Shown in pieces: positions 7,740 to 15,008 of a stretch of DNA of 33,656 nt (its first letter is position 1; the number at the start of each line of letters is the position of its first letter). The notes beneath the pieces were generated by a model, which was not told where the DNA came from, ran no database searches, and worked only from the letters and a program-made list of their open reading frames with translations. Source of the stretch: Vulcanimicrobiota bacterium (GTDB lineage Bacteria > Vulcanimicrobiota > Vulcanimicrobiia > Eremiobacterales > Eremiobacteraceae); the NCBI GenBank assembly GCA_014304875.1, contig JACRUD010000034.1, forward strand, positions 1-33,656. The letters are read 5' to 3'. The position numbers were made by a program, and so were the translations under genes.

Positions 7740-8147
7740 TTGAGACGAAATGGGCGCGGCAAGCGCGGCGGTGAACCCCAAACCCTCGGCCAACTGGAGC
7801 TCGCGGTGTTGCGTTGCGTGTGGCGAAGAAAGCACGCGACGGTGCGGGAGGTCTGGTCCGACATCGAGCGGAGACGGCACGTGGCGTACACGACCGTCGC
7901 CACCGTCATGACGCGGCTGACCGAAAAAGCGCTGCTGCGCCAGGCCCGCAATGGAAACGTGTACGAATACGCCGCCACTCGCTCCGAAGAGCGGGTGATC
8001 GGTTCTGTGTTAGACGCGACGGTGAAGCGGTTGCTCGGCGGCCGGCCAGCCCTACTCCTCGCCGCCTTGGTCCGTCACAAGGCGCGGCTCACGCCGGACG
8101 ATGTGGTGACGTTGGAAAGTCTTGGCAAAGATATCCGCCGGCGCTGA
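7740..8147 (+). CDS. BlaI/MecI/CopY-family transcriptional regulator
   Basis: A 135-residue winged-helix protein. LGQLELAVLRCVWRRKHATV (residues 16-35) and the recognition region YTTVATVMTRLTEKALLRQA are typical of the penicillinase-repressor family, which bind palindromic operators as dimers. The C-terminal part would form the dimerisation helices. The only usable start is a TTG at 7740, in frame with the ispH stop 13 codons earlier and with no clear Shine-Dalgarno. No BlaR1-type sensor protease or beta-lactamase is present in the window, so the signal and targets are unknown. It overlaps the next gene by 26 bases and sits between ispH and a polyprenyl synthase. Confidence 0.86.
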   Translation: MRRNGRGKRGGEPQTLGQLELAVLRCVWRRKHATVREVWSDIERRRHVAYTTVATVMTRLTEKALLRQARNGNVYEYAATRSEERVIGSVLDATVKRLLGGRPALLLAALVRHKARLTPDDVVTLESLGKDIRRR

Positions 8148-9123
8148 TCTCGGAGACTGCTTCGAACGCTATCTCCAATCGTTTCTGCGGGAACAATCGA
8201 CCTCAAGCGCGGTCTACGGGCAAATCCACCGGCACTTCGGGTGCGGTTCCGACGGTATCCTTCGCCGTGGAAAGCGGCTGCGGCCGGCAATGCTTGGGGC
8301 TGCCGCGCGTTCTTTGGGTGCGCCGTTGTCGGCCACGCTCGCAGCAGCGGCGGCGATCGAGCTTCTTCACAACTACTCGCTGATCCACGACGACATCGAA
8401 GACGGGGATCGCCTGCGACACGGTCGGGAAACTTTGTGGTGCCAGTTCGGCCTCGCGCATGGAATCAATGCCGGGGATGCCGTCGGATCCTTGGCTCAGC
8501 TCGCGCTTGAGCCGGCGGGCAAGGAGCTGGGCTTCGAGGCGGCGTTCGCCATGAGCATGGAGCTTGCCCAAGCCAACCGGCGTATGTGCGAGGGACAAGC
8601 GCTTGATTTGGAACTTGAGGTCGCCGAGCCGCGCAGTGTGACGATTCAGACGTATATGACCATGATCGAAGGCAAGACCGCTGCTCTGTTCCGCTGCGCC
8701 GCGATGCTTGGCGCTCTCTGCGCCGCAGCCGACCACGATGACCTGCGCCGCTGCAGCGATATCGGACGTGTCTTCGGGCTTGGTTTTCAGATCGACGATG
8801 ACATCGCCGGATGTTGGGGATCCGCCGAAGAGACGGGCAAGATTCCCGCTTCCGATATCGCCCGACGTAAGAAGACGTATCCGATTGTCTGGACGATGGA
8901 GCGCGGTCCAAGAGATGCCGCGCGCATAGTCGCAGACGCTTGCAGGCGCCAACAGACGCCGCTCGATGAAGCGGCTAGCCGTGAGGTGCTCGACGCCCTC
9001 GCAAGCGCCGGGGCCCAGTCTGCGGCGCGGGAAGCTGCGAACTCTTATTTCACGCAAGCACTCGAGCGGGCAGAGAAGTTCCCTCCCCTAGCGCGGTTTA
9101 TTCAGCCATGGCACAAGGCGTGA
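8122..9123 (+). CDS. Polyprenyl diphosphate synthase (geranylgeranyl/farnesyl type)
   Basis: A 333-residue trans-isoprenyl diphosphate synthase. GKRLRP (50-55) binds the diphosphate of IPP. The first aspartate-rich motif is HDDIED (89-94) followed by RLRHG, and the second is QIDDDIAG (223-230) followed by a TGK...D...RRKKTYP segment. Tyr85, five residues before the first motif, suggests a medium-chain product (C15-C20) rather than a long quinone tail, but product length is not settled by sequence. The start is a TTG inside the BlaI-like gene, after GGAAAG. The gene precedes the fused membrane glycosyltransferase and could help make its lipid carrier, although the usual carrier precursor needs a cis-prenyltransferase that is not seen here. 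Confidence 0.92.
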   Translation: MAKISAGADLGDCFERYLQSFLREQSTSSAVYGQIHRHFGCGSDGILRRGKRLRPAMLGAAARSLGAPLSATLAAAAAIELLHNYSLIHDDIEDGDRLRHGRETLWCQFGLAHGINAGDAVGSLAQLALEPAGKELGFEAAFAMSMELAQANRRMCEGQALDLELEVAEPRSVTIQTYMTMIEGKTAALFRCAAMLGALCAAADHDDLRRCSDIGRVFGLGFQIDDDIAGCWGSAEETGKIPASDIARRKKTYPIVWTMERGPRDAARIVADACRRQQTPLDEAASREVLDALASAGAQSAAREAANSYFTQALERAEKFPPLARFIQPWHKA

Positions 9124-9174: not shown

Positions 9175-12100
9175 GTGCCGGACCGAACCGAGTCGCGCGT
9201 GGCTAGACCAAACGCCGGAACGTTAGCGTCCCTTCAGAAGAAGAAGTCGGACGAGGGAGCGGCGCGTTTGCGTGACGCTCCGGCGGCTACCGGGTCGACT
9301 TTCGCCCTAAATCGCGGCGAAACCGGGGCATTGGCCGCTTTGGGTCTCGTCGCCATCCTCATTCGCTTGATTCTTGTGCCGCTAGCCGGCCACGTTACCG
9401 ACGTCGGGACTTTTGAGGCGTGGACGCAAAGCCTCATCAAGTACGGCGCCGGGCAGTTCTATGCCCACGCCGGTTTCGTCGACTATCCGCCCGGCTACAT
9501 GCTCGTTCTTTGGCTCACCGGACTTGTTTATAAAGCGACGTTCATGGCCGGCGATTCATCGCTGACCGCTTTGCGCATTTTTGTCAAATTGCCGGCCGTG
9601 CTGGCGGATGTGGGTCTGACCTACCTCGTCTATCTCATCGCGCGCCGAAGTTACAGCGCTTCAAAATCACTTTTTGCCGCCGCGGTGATCGCCTTGAATC
9701 CGGCGGTGTGGCTTGTTTCCGCATACTGGGGACAGGCGGATTCCGTGGCTGCGGTCTTCCTGCTGTGGGCGATTTATCTCGCGGTCACTCGTAGGTACGA
9801 ATGGGCCTGGGCCGCCCTGGCTCTGGCGGTCTTGATTAAACCGCAGCCGCTCGTTTTTGCTCCAATGCTCGCCGCCTGGCAAGTCCGCAGCGCAGTCTCG
9901 CCGCGCGGCGCGCTGCGCGTGCTTGTGGCCCCGCTGATCGGGCTGATCGTGGCGTACTTGGGTTCTGTCGCTTTCGCGCCGCACGGGCAGCCCGGTCAGG
10001 TCCTGGCCTGGCTCTACGATCGCTATCATGCGGGCATGAGCGTGTATCCGTTCAACTCGGTCAACGCATTCAACCTGTATTCCGTATCGCGCGATTTTTG
10101 GCAACCCGATAACCTTAGGATCCTGGGCATCCCGCAATATGTTTGGGGGACGGTAATTTTCGTCTTTCTGCTTGCCGCACTGGTGCTGCGGCAATGGCGG
10201 ACGACTGGGACCGACCGGCCGGATGCGGATCGGGAGCGCAGCTTCTACACGGCCGCCTTCGTCGCGCTTCTCGGGCTTTTCATGCTGACCACGCGCATGC
10301 ACGAGCGATACATGTTTTCGGCGCTGGCGGTCGCTCCCCTGATATGGAACATCGGATCGCTCCAGCGACTTGTCGTCTCCCTGCTCTCGTTGACCTTTGT
10401 GGCCAATCTCTTCTACGCGCTGCAATATCTTTTCCATCAGAGCACGGATCTGCATCCGCTGGAAGTACACGGGCTGTCGCTGCTGAACGTCGCCTGCCTT
10501 TTCTTCGTCGCGGGCGTCTATCTCATCGACGAGATGGGGACGGCCGTGGACGGCTTTTTCCGCGCCGCGGGCAGCCGCAAAGCGATGACCGAGAGCTGGA
10601 CCGGCCGTCGCGTGCCGCTCATCTTCGAAGGCCTTGTGGGCCTGTCGAAAGCCGATTATCTCATCGCGGGCGGATTGACGGCCGCGACCGGCATTCTGCT
10701 GTTGCACAACATCGGTGCACCGCACGAGCGCATCTTCGACGAGATCTACTACGCCCGGGCGGCTCAAGAGTACCTCGCGCACAAAGACATCTACGAATAC
10801 ACCCATCCACCGCTGCCGAAACTGATCATGGCGGTCGCGGTATGGCTCTTTCGGGGCATGCCGGACCCTCAAGCAGCCCGCGTGGCCAGCGCTCTGTTCG
10901 GGACGCTCACCGTTCCGCTTCTCTACGCGTTCGCGAAGCGGCTGTTCTCATCGACTGCCTTTGCGGCCGTCGCCGTCTTTTTGTTGCTGACCAGCGGCTA
11001 CCATTACGTGCAGTCGCGCATCGCGACGCCGGAAATCTTCTTGGCGTTTTTCGCCCTGTTGACGCTCTACTGCACGTACCGGCTATGGACAGCGTCTCAG
11101 ATCGTCGCACGTCCCGCCCGGTCCGCAGATGTGGACTTGCGGCCCTTCACGGCCACAGGCGGGGTGGTGTTGCTGACGGTGCTCTACGCCTATGTGGAAG
11201 CCGCCCATCAGTCCGCGGCCCCCTACGTCGTTTTCATCGCGATACTGGCGGCTGTCTGCACGGCGGCATACCTGCAAGAGAGACGCAGGACCGGCGCAAT
11301 GATCGTTTATCCGGATGGAACGCGCAAGGAAGGTGATGCGATCCGCTTTCCTTGGGGTGAGCGGCGGAGCTTGAAGAGCGCGGCTTCGGCCCAAGATGGC
11401 CAGAGTTTGCGCTTCACCGCTGAAGCCGCCGTGCTGGAGGAGCATGGCGGCGTTTTGCAATGGCAAAATGACGGAGCCATGGCCGGAACCCATGGCCGTG
11501 CTGTCATCCGTGATGCGCAACGATGGCCGGTGTGGCTGCTCTTGTCCAGCTTGGCTGTCGCCTGCGTCATCTCGAGCAAATGGGTCGGCAGCTTCGACCT
11601 GACCGTGATATGGTGCATTGCGGCTCTCGTGAGCGCCCAGCAGTTCCTTCCGCTGGCATCCAAGCCGAAAGAGAGTGACGGCGGCTCGGTTCCTTGGCGT
11701 CTTCTATGGGGCAACCCATTCGGCTTTCGGTTGCCGCTTTTCGTCGCAGCCACGCTGCTGGCAACCGCCGTGGTCTATTTCCTGTGCTACATTCCTTATT
11801 TCAGCCAGGGAGCCGGACACAGTTTCCGCGACCTCGTGAACTTGCAGCTGGCGATGTTCCGCTACCATTATTCGCTGGTCGCCACCCACCCCTACAGTTC
11901 GAAGTGGTGGACGTGGCCGCTCGAGCTGCGCCCCGTTTCGTACTATTATAAGCCGTTTGGCGGCAGCGGCCCGACCCAAATCGTGGCCGAGATCCTTGCC
12001 GTTCCCAACCCGGCTGTATGGTGGGCGGGTGTCATCACCGTCCCCCTGGCCGGTTGGCTGGCTTGGCGGGAGCGCCACAAGGGCATGATGCTGTGCGTCT

Positions 12101-12405
12101 TCGCCTACCTGGTCCAGTGGCTGCCGTGGGCCGCGTCGCCGCGCATCGATTTTCAGTACAATTTCTACCCAAACCTTGCCATTATCTGCCTGTGCTCCGC
12201 CTACGCGCTCGCGCGATTGTGGAGCAATGCTGGCGCGACGGAGGACGGCCGGCGCCGGGCGCAGATCTTCGTCGGCTGTTACTTGGCCGTCTGTCTGGCC
12301 CTTTTCTTATTCTTCTTTCCCGTGCTTAGCGGCGATCATATATCCTGGCGGCACTGGCACGAGCGGATGTGGCTGCCGTACGGCTGGCCGTACGGATGGA
12401 TTTGA
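9175..12405 (+). CDS. Fused GT-C membrane glycosyltransferase: Gpi18-like half plus PMT-like half
   Basis: A 1076-residue polytopic protein with two glycosyltransferase-C units. Residues ~45-465 resemble Gpi18-type mannosyltransferases: TDVGTFEAW with the acidic first-loop residue, YPPGYML, SAYWGQADS and LIKPQPLVFAPM. Residues ~490-1076 resemble bacterial protein O-mannosyltransferases (PMT, GT39): the catalytic-type FDEIYYARAAQEYL, THPPLPKL near 540, ATPEIFLAFF, ISSKWVGSFD, and a PMT C-terminal domain with SSKWWTWPLELRPVSYYY near 911. An extra soluble stretch of about 75 residues (~708-782) interrupts the PMT half. Both families use polyprenyl-phosphate sugars on the outer face of the membrane. 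The GTG start has AGAGGGG upstream. The DPM1-like gene overlaps its 3' end. Sugar and acceptor are inferred. Confidence 0.88.
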   Translation: MPDRTESRVARPNAGTLASLQKKKSDEGAARLRDAPAATGSTFALNRGETGALAALGLVAILIRLILVPLAGHVTDVGTFEAWTQSLIKYGAGQFYAHAGFVDYPPGYMLVLWLTGLVYKATFMAGDSSLTALRIFVKLPAVLADVGLTYLVYLIARRSYSASKSLFAAAVIALNPAVWLVSAYWGQADSVAAVFLLWAIYLAVTRRYEWAWAALALAVLIKPQPLVFAPMLAAWQVRSAVSPRGALRVLVAPLIGLIVAYLGSVAFAPHGQPGQVLAWLYDRYHAGMSVYPFNSVNAFNLYSVSRDFWQPDNLRILGIPQYVWGTVIFVFLLAALVLRQWRTTGTDRPDADRERSFYTAAFVALLGLFMLTTRMHERYMFSALAVAPLIWNIGSLQRLVVSLLSLTFVANLFYALQYLFHQSTDLHPLEVHGLSLLNVACLFFVAGVYLIDEMGTAVDGFFRAAGSRKAMTESWTGRRVPLIFEGLVGLSKADYLIAGGLTAATGILLLHNIGAPHERIFDEIYYARAAQEYLAHKDIYEYTHPPLPKLIMAVAVWLFRGMPDPQAARVASALFGTLTVPLLYAFAKRLFSSTAFAAVAVFLLLTSGYHYVQSRIATPEIFLAFFALLTLYCTYRLWTASQIVARPARSADVDLRPFTATGGVVLLTVLYAYVEAAHQSAAPYVVFIAILAAVCTAAYLQERRRTGAMIVYPDGTRKEGDAIRFPWGERRSLKSAASAQDGQSLRFTAEAAVLEEHGGVLQWQNDGAMAGTHGRAVIRDAQRWPVWLLLSSLAVACVISSKWVGSFDLTVIWCIAALVSAQQFLPLASKPKESDGGSVPWRLLWGNPFGFRLPLFVAATLLATAVVYFLCYIPYFSQGAGHSFRDLVNLQLAMFRYHYSLVATHPYSSKWWTWPLELRPVSYYYKPFGGSGPTQIVAEILAVPNPAVWWAGVITVPLAGWLAWRERHKGMMLCVFAYLVQWLPWAASPRIDFQYNFYPNLAIICLCSAYALARLWSNAGATEDGRRRAQIFVGCYLAVCLALFLFFFPVLSGDHISWRHWHERMWLPYGWPYGWI
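12376..12399 (+). repeat. 12-bp tandem duplication spanning a stop/start junction
   Basis: Two copies of ccgtacggNtgg, differing at one base (c at 12384, a at 12396), encode a repeated PYGW at the end of the fused glycosyltransferase. The base change in the second copy creates the ATG used as the start of the GT2 gene. Confidence 0.8.
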
Positions 12406-13148
12406 GTCGTGCGTCGGATAAGCGAGTCTCTGTAAGCGTCTTTTTTCCCGCTTTTAACGAAGAAGAAATCATTGAGAAGACGGTGCTAGACGCGCTGCGT
12501 TGTATAGGCCCGCTAGCCGATGACCTGGAGGTCATCGTGGTCGACGACGGCAGCGTCGACGGCACAGCTCGGCGCGTCGCCTCCCTGGCGGAGCGAGACG
12601 GAAACGTCCGACTCGTGCGCCATCCCCGAAATCTAGGCTACGGAGCGGCGCTGCGGACCGGCTTTGCGAGCGCGACGAAAGACCTGGTGTTTTTTTCCGA
12701 CGCCGACGGCCAGTTTGATCTCGCTGAGACCGCAGGTCTGCTGCCGCTGCTCCGCTGTGCTCCCGTCGTCGCCGGCTTCCGCATCAAAAGGAGTGATCCG
12801 CCGCACCGGCTTTTCATTGCAAAGACCTACCGGCTTATCATCGGGCTTGTTTTCGGCGTCTGGCTGCGGGATATCGATTGCGCGTTCAAGCTCTTTCGCC
12901 GGGAAGTCCTCGAGGGTCTCAACCTTGAATCGAACGGCGCGTTTATCAGCTCGGAGCTTTTGATCAAACTCCGGCGTCGCAACGTTCCGATCGCGGAAAA
13001 GGGCGTGCATCACTATCCCCGCACGACGGGCTATTCCAAGGGCGCTAACTTCCGCGTGATCGTCAGGACTATTCGCGATATCATCCGGTTGCGGCTGGGC
13101 CTGCCCCTGACGGCGCGCCGAGAAACCGCGGCCGGCACGGGTCCTTAG
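12396..13148 (+). CDS. Polyprenyl-phosphate mannose synthase-like glycosyltransferase (GT2, DPM1 type)
   Basis: A 250-residue GT-A enzyme. FPAFNEEEII near the N-terminus, VVDDGSVDGT (48-57), the NLGYGAALRTGF loop and the metal-binding DADGQFD (102-108) are typical of DPM1-like GT2 enzymes, as is the HHYPRTTGYSKG segment near the C-terminus. Such enzymes transfer mannose (or another hexose) from a nucleotide sugar to polyprenyl phosphate on the cytoplasmic side. No C-terminal membrane helices are seen, as in soluble DPM1. A GTG at 12369 would add 9 residues unlike the family; the ATG at 12396 is chosen. Its overlap with the fused GT-C gene suggests it makes that enzyme's lipid-linked donor. 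The sugar is inferred. Confidence 0.88.
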   Translation: MDLSRASDKRVSVSVFFPAFNEEEIIEKTVLDALRCIGPLADDLEVIVVDDGSVDGTARRVASLAERDGNVRLVRHPRNLGYGAALRTGFASATKDLVFFSDADGQFDLAETAGLLPLLRCAPVVAGFRIKRSDPPHRLFIAKTYRLIIGLVFGVWLRDIDCAFKLFRREVLEGLNLESNGAFISSELLIKLRRRNVPIAEKGVHHYPRTTGYSKGANFRVIVRTIRDIIRLRLGLPLTARRETAAGTGP

Positions 13149-13152
13149 CGCG

Positions 13153-13917
13153 ATGTCCGGTCACTCTAAGTGGCACAACATTCGATTGCGCAAGGGGAAG
13201 GTTGACGCGCAACGCGGTCAGCTCTTCACCAAGCTGAGTAAAGAGATCATCGTCGCGGCCAAATCTGGACCATCCGACCCGGAGGCGAATCTCCGGCTGA
13301 AGATGGCCGTCCTGAAAGCGCGCGGAGCGAACATGCCGGTGGAGACCATCAAACGGGCGATCGCGCGCTCAGGCGGTGAAGTCAAGGGGCAGACGCTCGA
13401 AGAGGTCCGCTACGAAGGGTACGGACCGGTCGGGGTCGCCATCATGGTCGATGCGGTGACCGATAATCGACACCGCACTGCCTCCGAGATGCGCTACGTT
13501 TTTTCCCGCAATGGCGGCAACCTCGGCGAGACCGGCTGCGTCGCGTGGCTGTTCGTGGAACGCGGCGTGCTCACCGTTCCCACCGCAGGAACGCTCAGCG
13601 AAGAAGATCTCTTAGACTGCGTTGCCGTCGACGGCGTCCTAGACGTGCGGTTCGAAGGCGACACCGCGGACATCATCACGGAGCCGCCGAGCTTGGGCGC
13701 TATTCGCGAGCACATAGAGCGCACGGTTGTGGCGCCCCGCAAAAAGGCCATACTCTTCGCCGGGATTCGATCCATCGCGAAGGCGCAGATAGACGTGCCT
13801 CCCGTGGACGGGGCGTCGGTGCTGGCGCTCTTGGACAGACTTGAAGAGCACGACGACGTCACATCGGTTGCCTCGAATGCCGACATCGCCGACGCCGTCC
13901 TCGAAGCGCTGGCGTGA
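13153..13917 (+). CDS. yebC: YebC/PmpR/TACO1-family protein
   Basis: A 254-residue member of a near-universal family, recognised from its invariant start MSGHSKWHNIRLRKGKVDAQ and from NMPVETIKRAIARSGGE, YEGYGPVGVAIMVDAVTDNR and NGGNLGETGCVAWLF. Members were annotated as transcriptional regulators; later work on YebC and mitochondrial TACO1 points to a role in translation of difficult stretches such as polyproline. Such a role would suit a genome with Pro-rich linkers like those at 14700 and 32500, but this is inference. The ATG is 4 bases after the GT2 stop, and the gene's own stop overlaps the PASTA gene start by 4 bases. The usual neighbour ruvC is absent. Confidence 0.95.
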   Translation: MSGHSKWHNIRLRKGKVDAQRGQLFTKLSKEIIVAAKSGPSDPEANLRLKMAVLKARGANMPVETIKRAIARSGGEVKGQTLEEVRYEGYGPVGVAIMVDAVTDNRHRTASEMRYVFSRNGGNLGETGCVAWLFVERGVLTVPTAGTLSEEDLLDCVAVDGVLDVRFEGDTADIITEPPSLGAIREHIERTVVAPRKKAILFAGIRSIAKAQIDVPPVDGASVLALLDRLEEHDDVTSVASNADIADAVLEALA

Positions 13918-15008
13918 ACCGCACCGGCAATCGACGCAGGTCCAGCGCACAGGAGGGCGCACTGGCGCTGCGGCCACGACGGCATTTTAGCCACTACATT
14001 CCCGTCGGTCTATTTTCGCTGCTGATTCTTGCTTTATTGCTCGTCGCCATCGCCGTCGCGCGCTGGTTTTGGCCGGCCGGACCCGCCGTCGTGGTTCCGC
14101 GGTTCGTCGGCATGTCCTACGACCAGGCCGACGCCCTTGCAACGGCGCACCGCCTCTCGCTTAAAGTGATCTCGCGCCGCGCCGACTATCAAGTCCCAAA
14201 AGATGAGGTCCTCGGGCAATTGCCGGCTGCCGGAGAACACGTGCGCGAAGGCAGGACCGTGGACCTCATCGTTTCAGACGGCGTTCCGTCGGAGAAGGTG
14301 CCCAATGTCGGTGATGTGCCCCTGCGCGAGGCGACGATTGCGTTGCAGAACGCGCGCTTGAAGGTCGGCAAAGTGGCGTACTTGACCGACCCCACGGCCG
14401 TGGACGGAACGGTGCTGACGTCCAGCCCTGACGCGTTGGCCGTGGTTCCGGCCGGCACAAAAGTCGATCTCGTCATCGCCAGAGGAGGAGCCGGAGCCCG
14501 GATCCCTGATTTCAGCGGCTTGCCCCTCTCGTTGGCGCAAGCCGCGGCAAAAGGTCTCAATCTCGACATCAAGACTCCGCCGACGTATCAGCCTATCGCA
14601 CCCGGGAGCAAACCGTACGGCATCGTCGTTTCACAAAAGCCCAGCCCGGGTCAAACATCTCAGCCCAAACACCCCATCGAGCTCACCCTCAGCGGCGGCG
14701 CTCCGCCCACTCCCCAGCCATCAATCGCTACGCTGACGCCGCCGCCATCCGCCGCCCCGACGGCCGCCCCGACAAGCGCTTTGCCCGCACCCAACGCGAA
14801 GCGCAGCCTGCACGTCGTGGTCTCGCTTCCGTCGTATCCGACAGCCAAGCGTCTGCGCATCGCGCTGCTCGACGCCGACGGGGCCCGCACGCTGTATAAT
14901 GCCATAACCAAGGGCGGTCTGACTTTGTCGTTCGACGTCGTGGTGGCCGGGTCGGCGACTATAGAGACCTACGCCGACAACTACCTCGTGAATGCGACGC
15001 CGCTCTGA
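13914..15008 (+). CDS. Membrane-anchored PASTA-domain protein without a kinase domain
   Basis: A 364-residue protein: a short basic cytoplasmic tail (1-28), one transmembrane helix (about 31-53), three PASTA repeats (about 59-126, 128-191, 193-265), a Pro/Ala/Thr-rich linker (about 266-304) and a C-terminal domain (about 307-364) that I do not recognise. PASTA repeats bind cell-wall muropeptides or beta-lactam-like ligands in PrkC/PknB kinases and some penicillin-binding proteins. Here no kinase or transpeptidase domain exists, though the position before rpe is where Firmicutes carry prkC. The GTG start overlaps the yebC stop (GTGA). A non-catalytic wall sensor or anchor seems likely. Confidence 0.88.
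   Translation: MNRTGNRRRSSAQEGALALRPRRHFSHYIPVGLFSLLILALLLVAIAVARWFWPAGPAVVVPRFVGMSYDQADALATAHRLSLKVISRRADYQVPKDEVLGQLPAAGEHVREGRTVDLIVSDGVPSEKVPNVGDVPLREATIALQNARLKVGKVAYLTDPTAVDGTVLTSSPDALAVVPAGTKVDLVIARGGAGARIPDFSGLPLSLAQAAAKGLNLDIKTPPTYQPIAPGSKPYGIVVSQKPSPGQTSQPKHPIELTLSGGAPPTPQPSIATLTPPPSAAPTAAPTSALPAPNAKRSLHVVVSLPSYPTAKRLRIALLDADGARTLYNAITKGGLTLSFDVVVAGSATIETYADNYLVNATPL

What the first reader, a model, noticed from the sequence alone, without database searches (positions are those of the whole stretch)
9175..12405. Two GT-C glycosyltransferases fused in one 1076-residue protein
The N-terminal half has Gpi18-like features (acidic first-loop motif, WGQADS, KPQPLVFAP) and the C-terminal half has PMT/GT39 features (FDEIYYA, HPPLPKL, a PMT C-terminal domain). 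These are normally separate enzymes. A fusion could make two consecutive transfers, for example one priming and one extending mannose on the same acceptor.
Basis: partly seen in the sequence, partly recalled or inferred. Interest (0 to 1): 0.75.

Follow-up and report, generated by a model that had tools for sequence, protein, structure and literature searches.

The report
Two-enzyme protein mannosyltransferase fusion in Eremiobacteria
A whole class of barely studied soil bacteria carries, in one long membrane protein, two sugar-transferring enzymes that are separate in the organisms where they have been studied; the second is of the protein-mannosylating kind, and the pair probably attaches a first sugar to exported proteins and then adds another, which awaits a bench test.

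Summary
ORF 9175-12405 (+, 1076 aa) is one uninterrupted protein carrying two complete GT-C modules. The C half is a protein O-mannosyltransferase (PMT/GT39; Pfam PMT and PMT_4TMC above cut-off, Pmt4 fold). The N half matches no single curated family above cut-off, but models confidently as a GT-C enzyme (pLDDT 95) closest to Dol-P-Man-dependent GPI mannosyltransferase I; its invariant motifs suggest it is active. It is not an assembly join: about 98 of 110 class Eremiobacteria genomes holding the N half have it in one long frame (the rest look truncated at contig ends), including a single-contig genome, in a fixed housekeeping locus next to a polyprenyl diphosphate synthase. Best reading: an intramolecular two-step O-glycan enzyme (PMT primes, N half extends), the pair that mycobacteria keep as separate PMT and PimE. 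Acceptor, sugar and order of action are not shown. Presence outside the phylum could not be searched. New variant of a known kind.

The parts
9175..12405 (+). Fused gene: N-terminal GT-C module plus C-terminal PMT (GT39) module, 1076 aa
   Evidence: start codon uncertain
9307..10524 (+). N-terminal GT-C module, residues 45-450; nearest solved fold Candida GPI mannosyltransferase I (Gpi14)
   Evidence: AF2 pLDDT 95.3, pTM 0.94; Foldseek 9wno_A TM 0.67/0.70, E 8e-6; profile to PIG-M chain E 6.6e-7
9400..9402 (+). Asp76, putative catalytic base in first periplasmic loop of the N module
   Evidence: invariant in 61/61 and 75/75 aligned relatives
10525..10647 (+). Interdomain linker, residues 451-491, Lys/Arg-rich, probably cytoplasmic
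   Evidence: median 42 aa, 12.5% K/R against 2.6% in N-half EL1; pLDDT below 50 at 466-480
10648..12378 (+). C-terminal PMT module, residues 492-1068 (PF02366, PF13231, PF16192)
   Evidence: Pmt4 by profile E 5e-22 and by fold TM 0.71
10738..10743 (+). Asp522-Glu523, the DE motif of PMTs (MtPMT D74)
   Evidence: invariant 61/61; aligned with the DE of Pmt4
11032..11034 (+). Glu620 at the position of the essential second Asp of PMTs (MtPMT D176)
   Evidence: aligned with Asp of Pmt4; Glu in 61/61; Asp in most PMTs of other classes of the phylum
11140..11283 (+). Extra transmembrane hairpin, residues 656-703, absent from several close relatives
   Evidence: 4 of 61 rows lack it
11290..11514 (+). 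Beta-strand domain, residues 706-780, inside the PMT half; probably cytoplasmic
   Evidence: about ten strands in the model; found in fused proteins and one of seven solo PMTs of the class, not in the other-class fusion
12142..12144 (+). Arg990 of the Rx2F motif (MtPMT R441/Y444)
   Evidence: invariant Arg 61/61, aromatic Phe/Trp 61/61 three residues on
8122..9123 (+). Polyprenyl diphosphate synthase, upstream neighbour; may supply the lipid carrier
   Evidence: Pfam PF00348 E 5e-52; near the fusion in 61 of 80 loci
12369..13148 (+). GT2 of the polyprenyl-phosphate hexose synthase type (ArnC/DPM-synthase-like); candidate donor maker
   Evidence: PDB hits ArnC E 3e-16, DPM synthase E 1e-10; beside the fusion in nearly all genomes of the same family
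13914..15008 (+). Membrane-anchored PASTA protein with Pro/Ser/Thr-rich linker: a possible acceptor (lead only)
   Evidence: three PASTA domains; P/S/T-rich stretch in own-family members, not in most of the class

Best explanation
A bifunctional periplasm-facing O-glycosylation enzyme. Both halves are GT-C modules whose active sites face the periplasm and which draw on a polyprenyl-phosphate sugar. The C half (PMT) transfers a first hexose, most likely mannose, to Ser/Thr of exported proteins; the N half adds a second hexose to that sugar. Shown: the fusion, its folds (predicted) and its conservation. Inferred: catalysis by both halves, the sugar, the protein acceptor, the order and the coupling.
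For: C half is a PMT by profile and by fold with DE, HPP..K and R-x2-F/W conserved. N half is a confident GT-C fold nearest to a Dol-P-Man mannosyltransferase, with invariant D76, DYP-GY, WGQ-D, KP and TR-HERY residues, unlike PIG-U, a GT-C subunit whose DxD became SSW (PMC12653191). The fusion is fixed in the class, beside a polyprenyl synthase and, in the own family, a polyprenyl-phosphate hexose synthase-like GT2. Mycobacteria do the same two steps with separate PMT and GT87 PimE (PMC12757957, PMC12331936). A Rv3264c-type mannose-1-phosphate guanylyltransferase homologue exists in the genome.
Against: No glycoprotein or activity from this class was found in the literature searched. The N half reaches no curated family cut-off, so linkage and sugar are open. 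The second PMT acid is Glu, and D176E of MtPMT is nearly inactive (PMC12331936). No ManC-type GMP_PMI guanylyltransferase match is found in 61 genomes and the ManB homologue is below its curated cut-off, so mannose is not certain. Solo N-half and solo PMT paralogues exist in some genomes, so the halves can work apart.
Confidence: 0.5

Rival explanations
1. Two independent enzymes sharing one donor pool: the PMT half glycosylates proteins, the N half glycosylates a lipid or wall polymer. The fusion only fixes dosage and location.
For: The nearest solved structures of the N half (Gpi14, ALG3, ALG6) act on lipid-linked acceptors; PimE itself also makes PIM glycolipids (general knowledge); the locus holds phospholipid and isoprenoid genes.
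Against: A class-wide fusion with few fissions suggests coupling of steps; mycobacterial GT87 enzymes do extend PMT products (PMC12757957).
Confidence: 0.27
2. The N half is a structural or regulatory partner that has taken the place of the second subunit of PMT dimers (as in Pmt1-Pmt2 or Pmt4-Pmt4) and does not itself catalyse.
For: Fungal PMTs are solved as dimers of GT-C units (entries listed); the GT-C protein PIG-U is a precedent for a non-catalytic GT-C subunit (PMC12653191).
Against: D76 and other loop motifs are invariant in 75 sequences, which a scaffold would not require; its best fold match is a catalytic mannosyltransferase rather than a PMT.
Confidence: 0.1
3. The PMT half no longer does canonical protein O-mannosylation: with Glu at the second acid and a new beta domain, it uses another hexose donor or another acceptor.
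For: Glu620 in 61/61 fused proteins against Asp in most PMTs of other classes in the phylum; NCBIfam Pmt equivalog score 84 against a cut-off of 800; no ManC-type enzyme in the class.
Against: Other PMT motifs (DE, HPP..K, THPYsS.wW.WP, R990) are retained.
Confidence: 0.12
4. Assembly or frameshift artefact joining two genes.
For: None found.
Against: Same fusion in 66 closed ORFs holding both halves, from independent assemblies, and in a single-contig 3.5-Mb genome (L142).
Confidence: 0.01

Closest known systems
Bacterial and eukaryotic protein O-mannosyltransferase (PMT, CAZy GT39: MtPMT, Pmt1/2/4)
   Same: C half: Pfam PMT + PMT_4TMC, DE motif, HPP..K, EL4 THPY..WP motif, R-x2-aromatic; Pmt4 fold
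   Different: Second catalytic acid is Glu and not Asp; extra TM hairpin and beta domain after TM4; fused behind another GT-C; far below the NCBIfam Pmt equivalog cut-off
PimE / GT87 mannosyltransferases that extend PMT products in Mycobacterium
   Same: Proposed role of the N half; weak GT87 profile match
   Different: GT87 score below cut-off in the window protein; PimE is a separate gene and also acts on PIMs
GPI mannosyltransferase I (PIG-M/Gpi14, GT50)
   Same: Best structural match of the N half, solved with Dol-P-Man bound; profile E 6.6e-7
   Different: No DxD (Asp76-Val-Gly); bacterial; no Pbn1/PIG-X-like partner looked for; acceptor GlcN-PI not expected
ALG6/ALG8 (GT57) and ALG3 (GT58)
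   Same: GT-C fold; Alg6_Alg8 profile match below cut-off
   Different: Lipid-linked oligosaccharide acceptors; separate enzymes

Membership tests
PMT (GT39) | Pfam PMT (PF02366) and PMT_4TMC (PF16192) above gathering cut-off | tested here: met
   51.3 bits (cut-off 22.7) and 73.3 bits (cut-off 32.4)
PMT (GT39) | DE motif before horizontal helix 1 in EL1 (MtPMT D74) | tested here: met
   D522-E523 invariant in 61 sequences, aligned with the DE of Pmt4
PMT (GT39) | Second essential Asp in EL2 (MtPMT D176, ScPmt1 D189) | tested here: not met
   Glu620, Glu in 61/61 fused proteins; still acidic
PMT (GT39) | R-x2-Y/F in EL5 (MtPMT R441/Y444) | tested here: met
   R990-x2-F993; Arg 61/61, Phe 54 and Trp 7
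NCBIfam PrMnsylTfPmt equivalog NF058602 | Score above curated cut-off 800 | tested here: not met
   83.9 bits
PMT (GT39) | Transfer of mannose from polyprenyl-P-Man to Ser/Thr | not testable with these tools
   needs biochemistry
GT-C superfamily (N half) | GT-C membrane fold with catalytic acid in first external loop | tested here: met
   AF2 pTM 0.94; Foldseek hits with E below 0.001 are GT-C proteins; D76 invariant
GT87 (PimE-type) | PF09594 above cut-off 25 | tested here: not met
   18.8 and 21.3 bits; 15 of 75 relatives match at E up to 0.01
Gpi18/PIG-V (GT76) | PIG-V family profile match | tested here: not met
   not among families matched by any of 75 N halves at E up to 0.01
GPI-MT-I (GT50) | DxD in first luminal loop | tested here: not met
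   D76-V77-G78; only D76 is invariant
ALG6/ALG8 (GT57) | PF03155 above cut-off 25 | tested here: not met
   22.7 bits

The most novel reading that the evidence does not exclude
A class-defining, single-chain two-step O-glycan synthase with an altered PMT active site (Glu for the essential second Asp) and an added beta domain, fixed at the root of class Eremiobacteria and paralleled by a second fusion in another class of the phylum. It would be a general, perhaps indispensable, protein O-glycosylation system in these bacteria.
Probability: 0.4. Interest if true: 0.68.

Novelty: new variant of a known kind. Interest (0 to 1): 0.52.

Why it matters
The GT-C enzymes met here in the literature and among solved structures are single catalytic modules per chain. 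A tandem that is conserved across a bacterial class gives a natural test of whether initiation and extension of O-mannosyl glycans are coupled, and it predicts class-wide protein O-glycosylation in Eremiobacteria, for which no report was found. The natural Asp-to-Glu change at a residue that is essential in the tuberculosis enzyme is a ready probe of the PMT mechanism.

Tried and rejected
Assembly join: rejected by conservation. Recent duplication of one GT-C into two: profile comparison of the halves gives only weak similarity over 122 columns (16% identity), so they are distinct GT-C lineages. N half as Gpi18: no profile support. Mannose excluded for lack of ManC: not accepted, because an actinobacterial-type ManB homologue is present. 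PASTA protein as general acceptor: the Pro/Ser/Thr-rich linker is found in own-family members but not in most of the class. Adjacent separate GT-C and PMT genes in G064 (L153) as a split version: the upstream GT-C is a PMT_2-type protein, so not clearly orthologous. Searches for the fusion outside the phylum: plasmid records gave only PMT-part matches, viral contigs none, and genome searches could not be centred on other phyla, so presence elsewhere is untested. Literature searches for a GT39/GT87 fusion returned nothing.

Full report
What is there. The window is contig C120 of a 2.49-Mb, 211-contig genome; nearest named records place it in Candidatus Eremiobacterota, and I refer to its class as Eremiobacteria. 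ORF 9175-12405 is open over 1076 codons. Pfam assigns residues 507-1068 to PMT, PMT_2 and PMT_4TMC above cut-off and gives only a sub-threshold GT87 match (104-365) in the N half.

The N half is a glycosyltransferase of the GT-C kind. Seventy-five N halves, each scanned alone, match PMT_2 (44), GT87 (15) and Alg6_Alg8 (11), which are all GT-C families (general knowledge), with no single winner. A profile finds the solved PIG-M/GPI mannosyltransferase 1 chain (E 6.6e-7). AlphaFold2 gives pLDDT 95.3, pTM 0.94, and the PDB matches with E below 0.001 are GT-C proteins, led by Candida GPI-MT-I with Dol-P-Man bound (TM 0.67/0.70), then ALG3, ALG6, PIG-U, STT3 and ArnT. The first-loop Asp76, DYP-GY, WGQ-D, KP and TR-HERY are invariant in 61 aligned full-length proteins. 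PIG-U shows what a non-catalytic GT-C looks like (DxD replaced by SSW, PMC12653191); the N half keeps its acid.

The C half is a PMT. The profile of the full alignment hits Pmt4, Pmt1 and Pmt2 (E 5e-22 to 1.5e-11); the full model aligns with Pmt4 (TM 0.71 by target) and separately with GPI-MT-I (TM 0.70 by target), so one chain holds both folds. The full model is less certain than the N half (pLDDT 83.8, pTM 0.65), so the relative placement of the halves is not known. The C half has two additions: a transmembrane hairpin (656-703) that some close relatives lack, and a beta domain (706-780). From the N-in topology measured for MtPMT (PMC12331936) both lie after TM4, which would put the beta domain in the cytoplasm (inference). 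Solo PMTs of the class lack the beta domain except one.

A changed active-site residue. Alignments with Pmt4 put Glu620 opposite the Asp that corresponds to MtPMT D176 (correspondence from PMC12331936). It is Glu in all 61 aligned fused proteins and in six of seven solo PMTs of the class (the seventh was not matched by the motif), while PMTs of other classes of the phylum whose motif could be read clearly have Asp. D176E nearly abolishes MtPMT activity (PMC12331936). So the lineage either compensates or has shifted its chemistry.

Distribution and history. With an N-half profile, 110 of 116 class genomes and 1 of 32 other-class genomes of the phylum match; by my count from the table, 98 of the 110 have the N half in an open frame of 883 aa or more, and the rest look truncated at contig ends. 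PMT_4TMC hits lie in frames of the same length on the same contigs. The locus order cmk-plsC-(ispH)-polyprenyl synthase-fusion-yebC-PASTA-rpe is conserved. In quick trees both halves separate the same main families, and solo PMTs nest inside the fused set with at least four changes forced by supported branches, so solo PMTs in the class look secondary. Placement of solo N halves is unsure because of long branches. In one genome of another class (G068, L141) a 1135-aa ORF also joins an N-half-like GT-C (E 3.4e-16) to a PMT (E 4e-49), without the beta domain and with Asp at the second acid: either an older fusion lost elsewhere, or a parallel one. The other out-of-class PMTs listed are solo frames of about 350-595 aa.

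How it probably works. The neighbour 8122-9123 is a polyprenyl diphosphate synthase. The next gene, 12369-13148, resembles ArnC and dolichol-P-mannose synthase and sits beside the fusion in nearly all genomes of the own family, though not in the rest of the class. A Rv3264c-type guanylyltransferase homologue is encoded elsewhere in the genome. The Lys/Arg-rich linker (12.5% against 2.6% in the N-half EL1) fits a cytoplasmic linker with the N-half active site outside (inference). In mycobacteria PMT adds the first mannose to exported proteins and a GT87 enzyme, PimE, elongates it (PMC12757957, PMC12331936). The fusion is most simply this pair in one chain. That the halves act in sequence on one acceptor is inference (about 0.5).

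Limits. No experiment bears on this protein. Whether the fusion occurs outside the phylum could not be tested. The literature searched is open-access only.

Noticed in passing
L141:2506-5913 (+), genome G068, another class of the phylum: A second, divergent fusion of an N-half-like GT-C with a PMT, 1135 aa, with a large insert in the N part, no beta domain and the canonical second Asp.
   Followed up: partly
window 11290-11514 (residues 706-780 of the fusion): A beta-strand domain of unknown family inside the PMT half, present across the class; no Pfam match.
   Followed up: partly
L140 (G029:C63:59800-65401): A second PMT copy with the beta domain (616 aa) lies beside the fused gene; possibly a tandem duplicate of the C half.
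   Followed up: partly
L001:556-2196 (-) and L003:694-2235 (-): Two further GT-C-like proteins in the own genome: one ArnT-like, one Agl23-like next to a GtrA-like gene.
   Followed up: no
L153:2020-4709 (+), genome G064: Adjacent separate genes for a PMT_2-type GT-C and a PMT, in the same order as the two modules of the fusion.
   Followed up: partly
window 13914-15008 (+): PASTA protein without kinase domain; in the own family it carries a Pro/Ser/Thr-rich linker, a possible O-glycosylation target.
   Followed up: partly
L155:2584-3855 (-), genome G063: An N-half-like GT-C stretch joined to an NPCBM/NEW2 domain.
   Followed up: no
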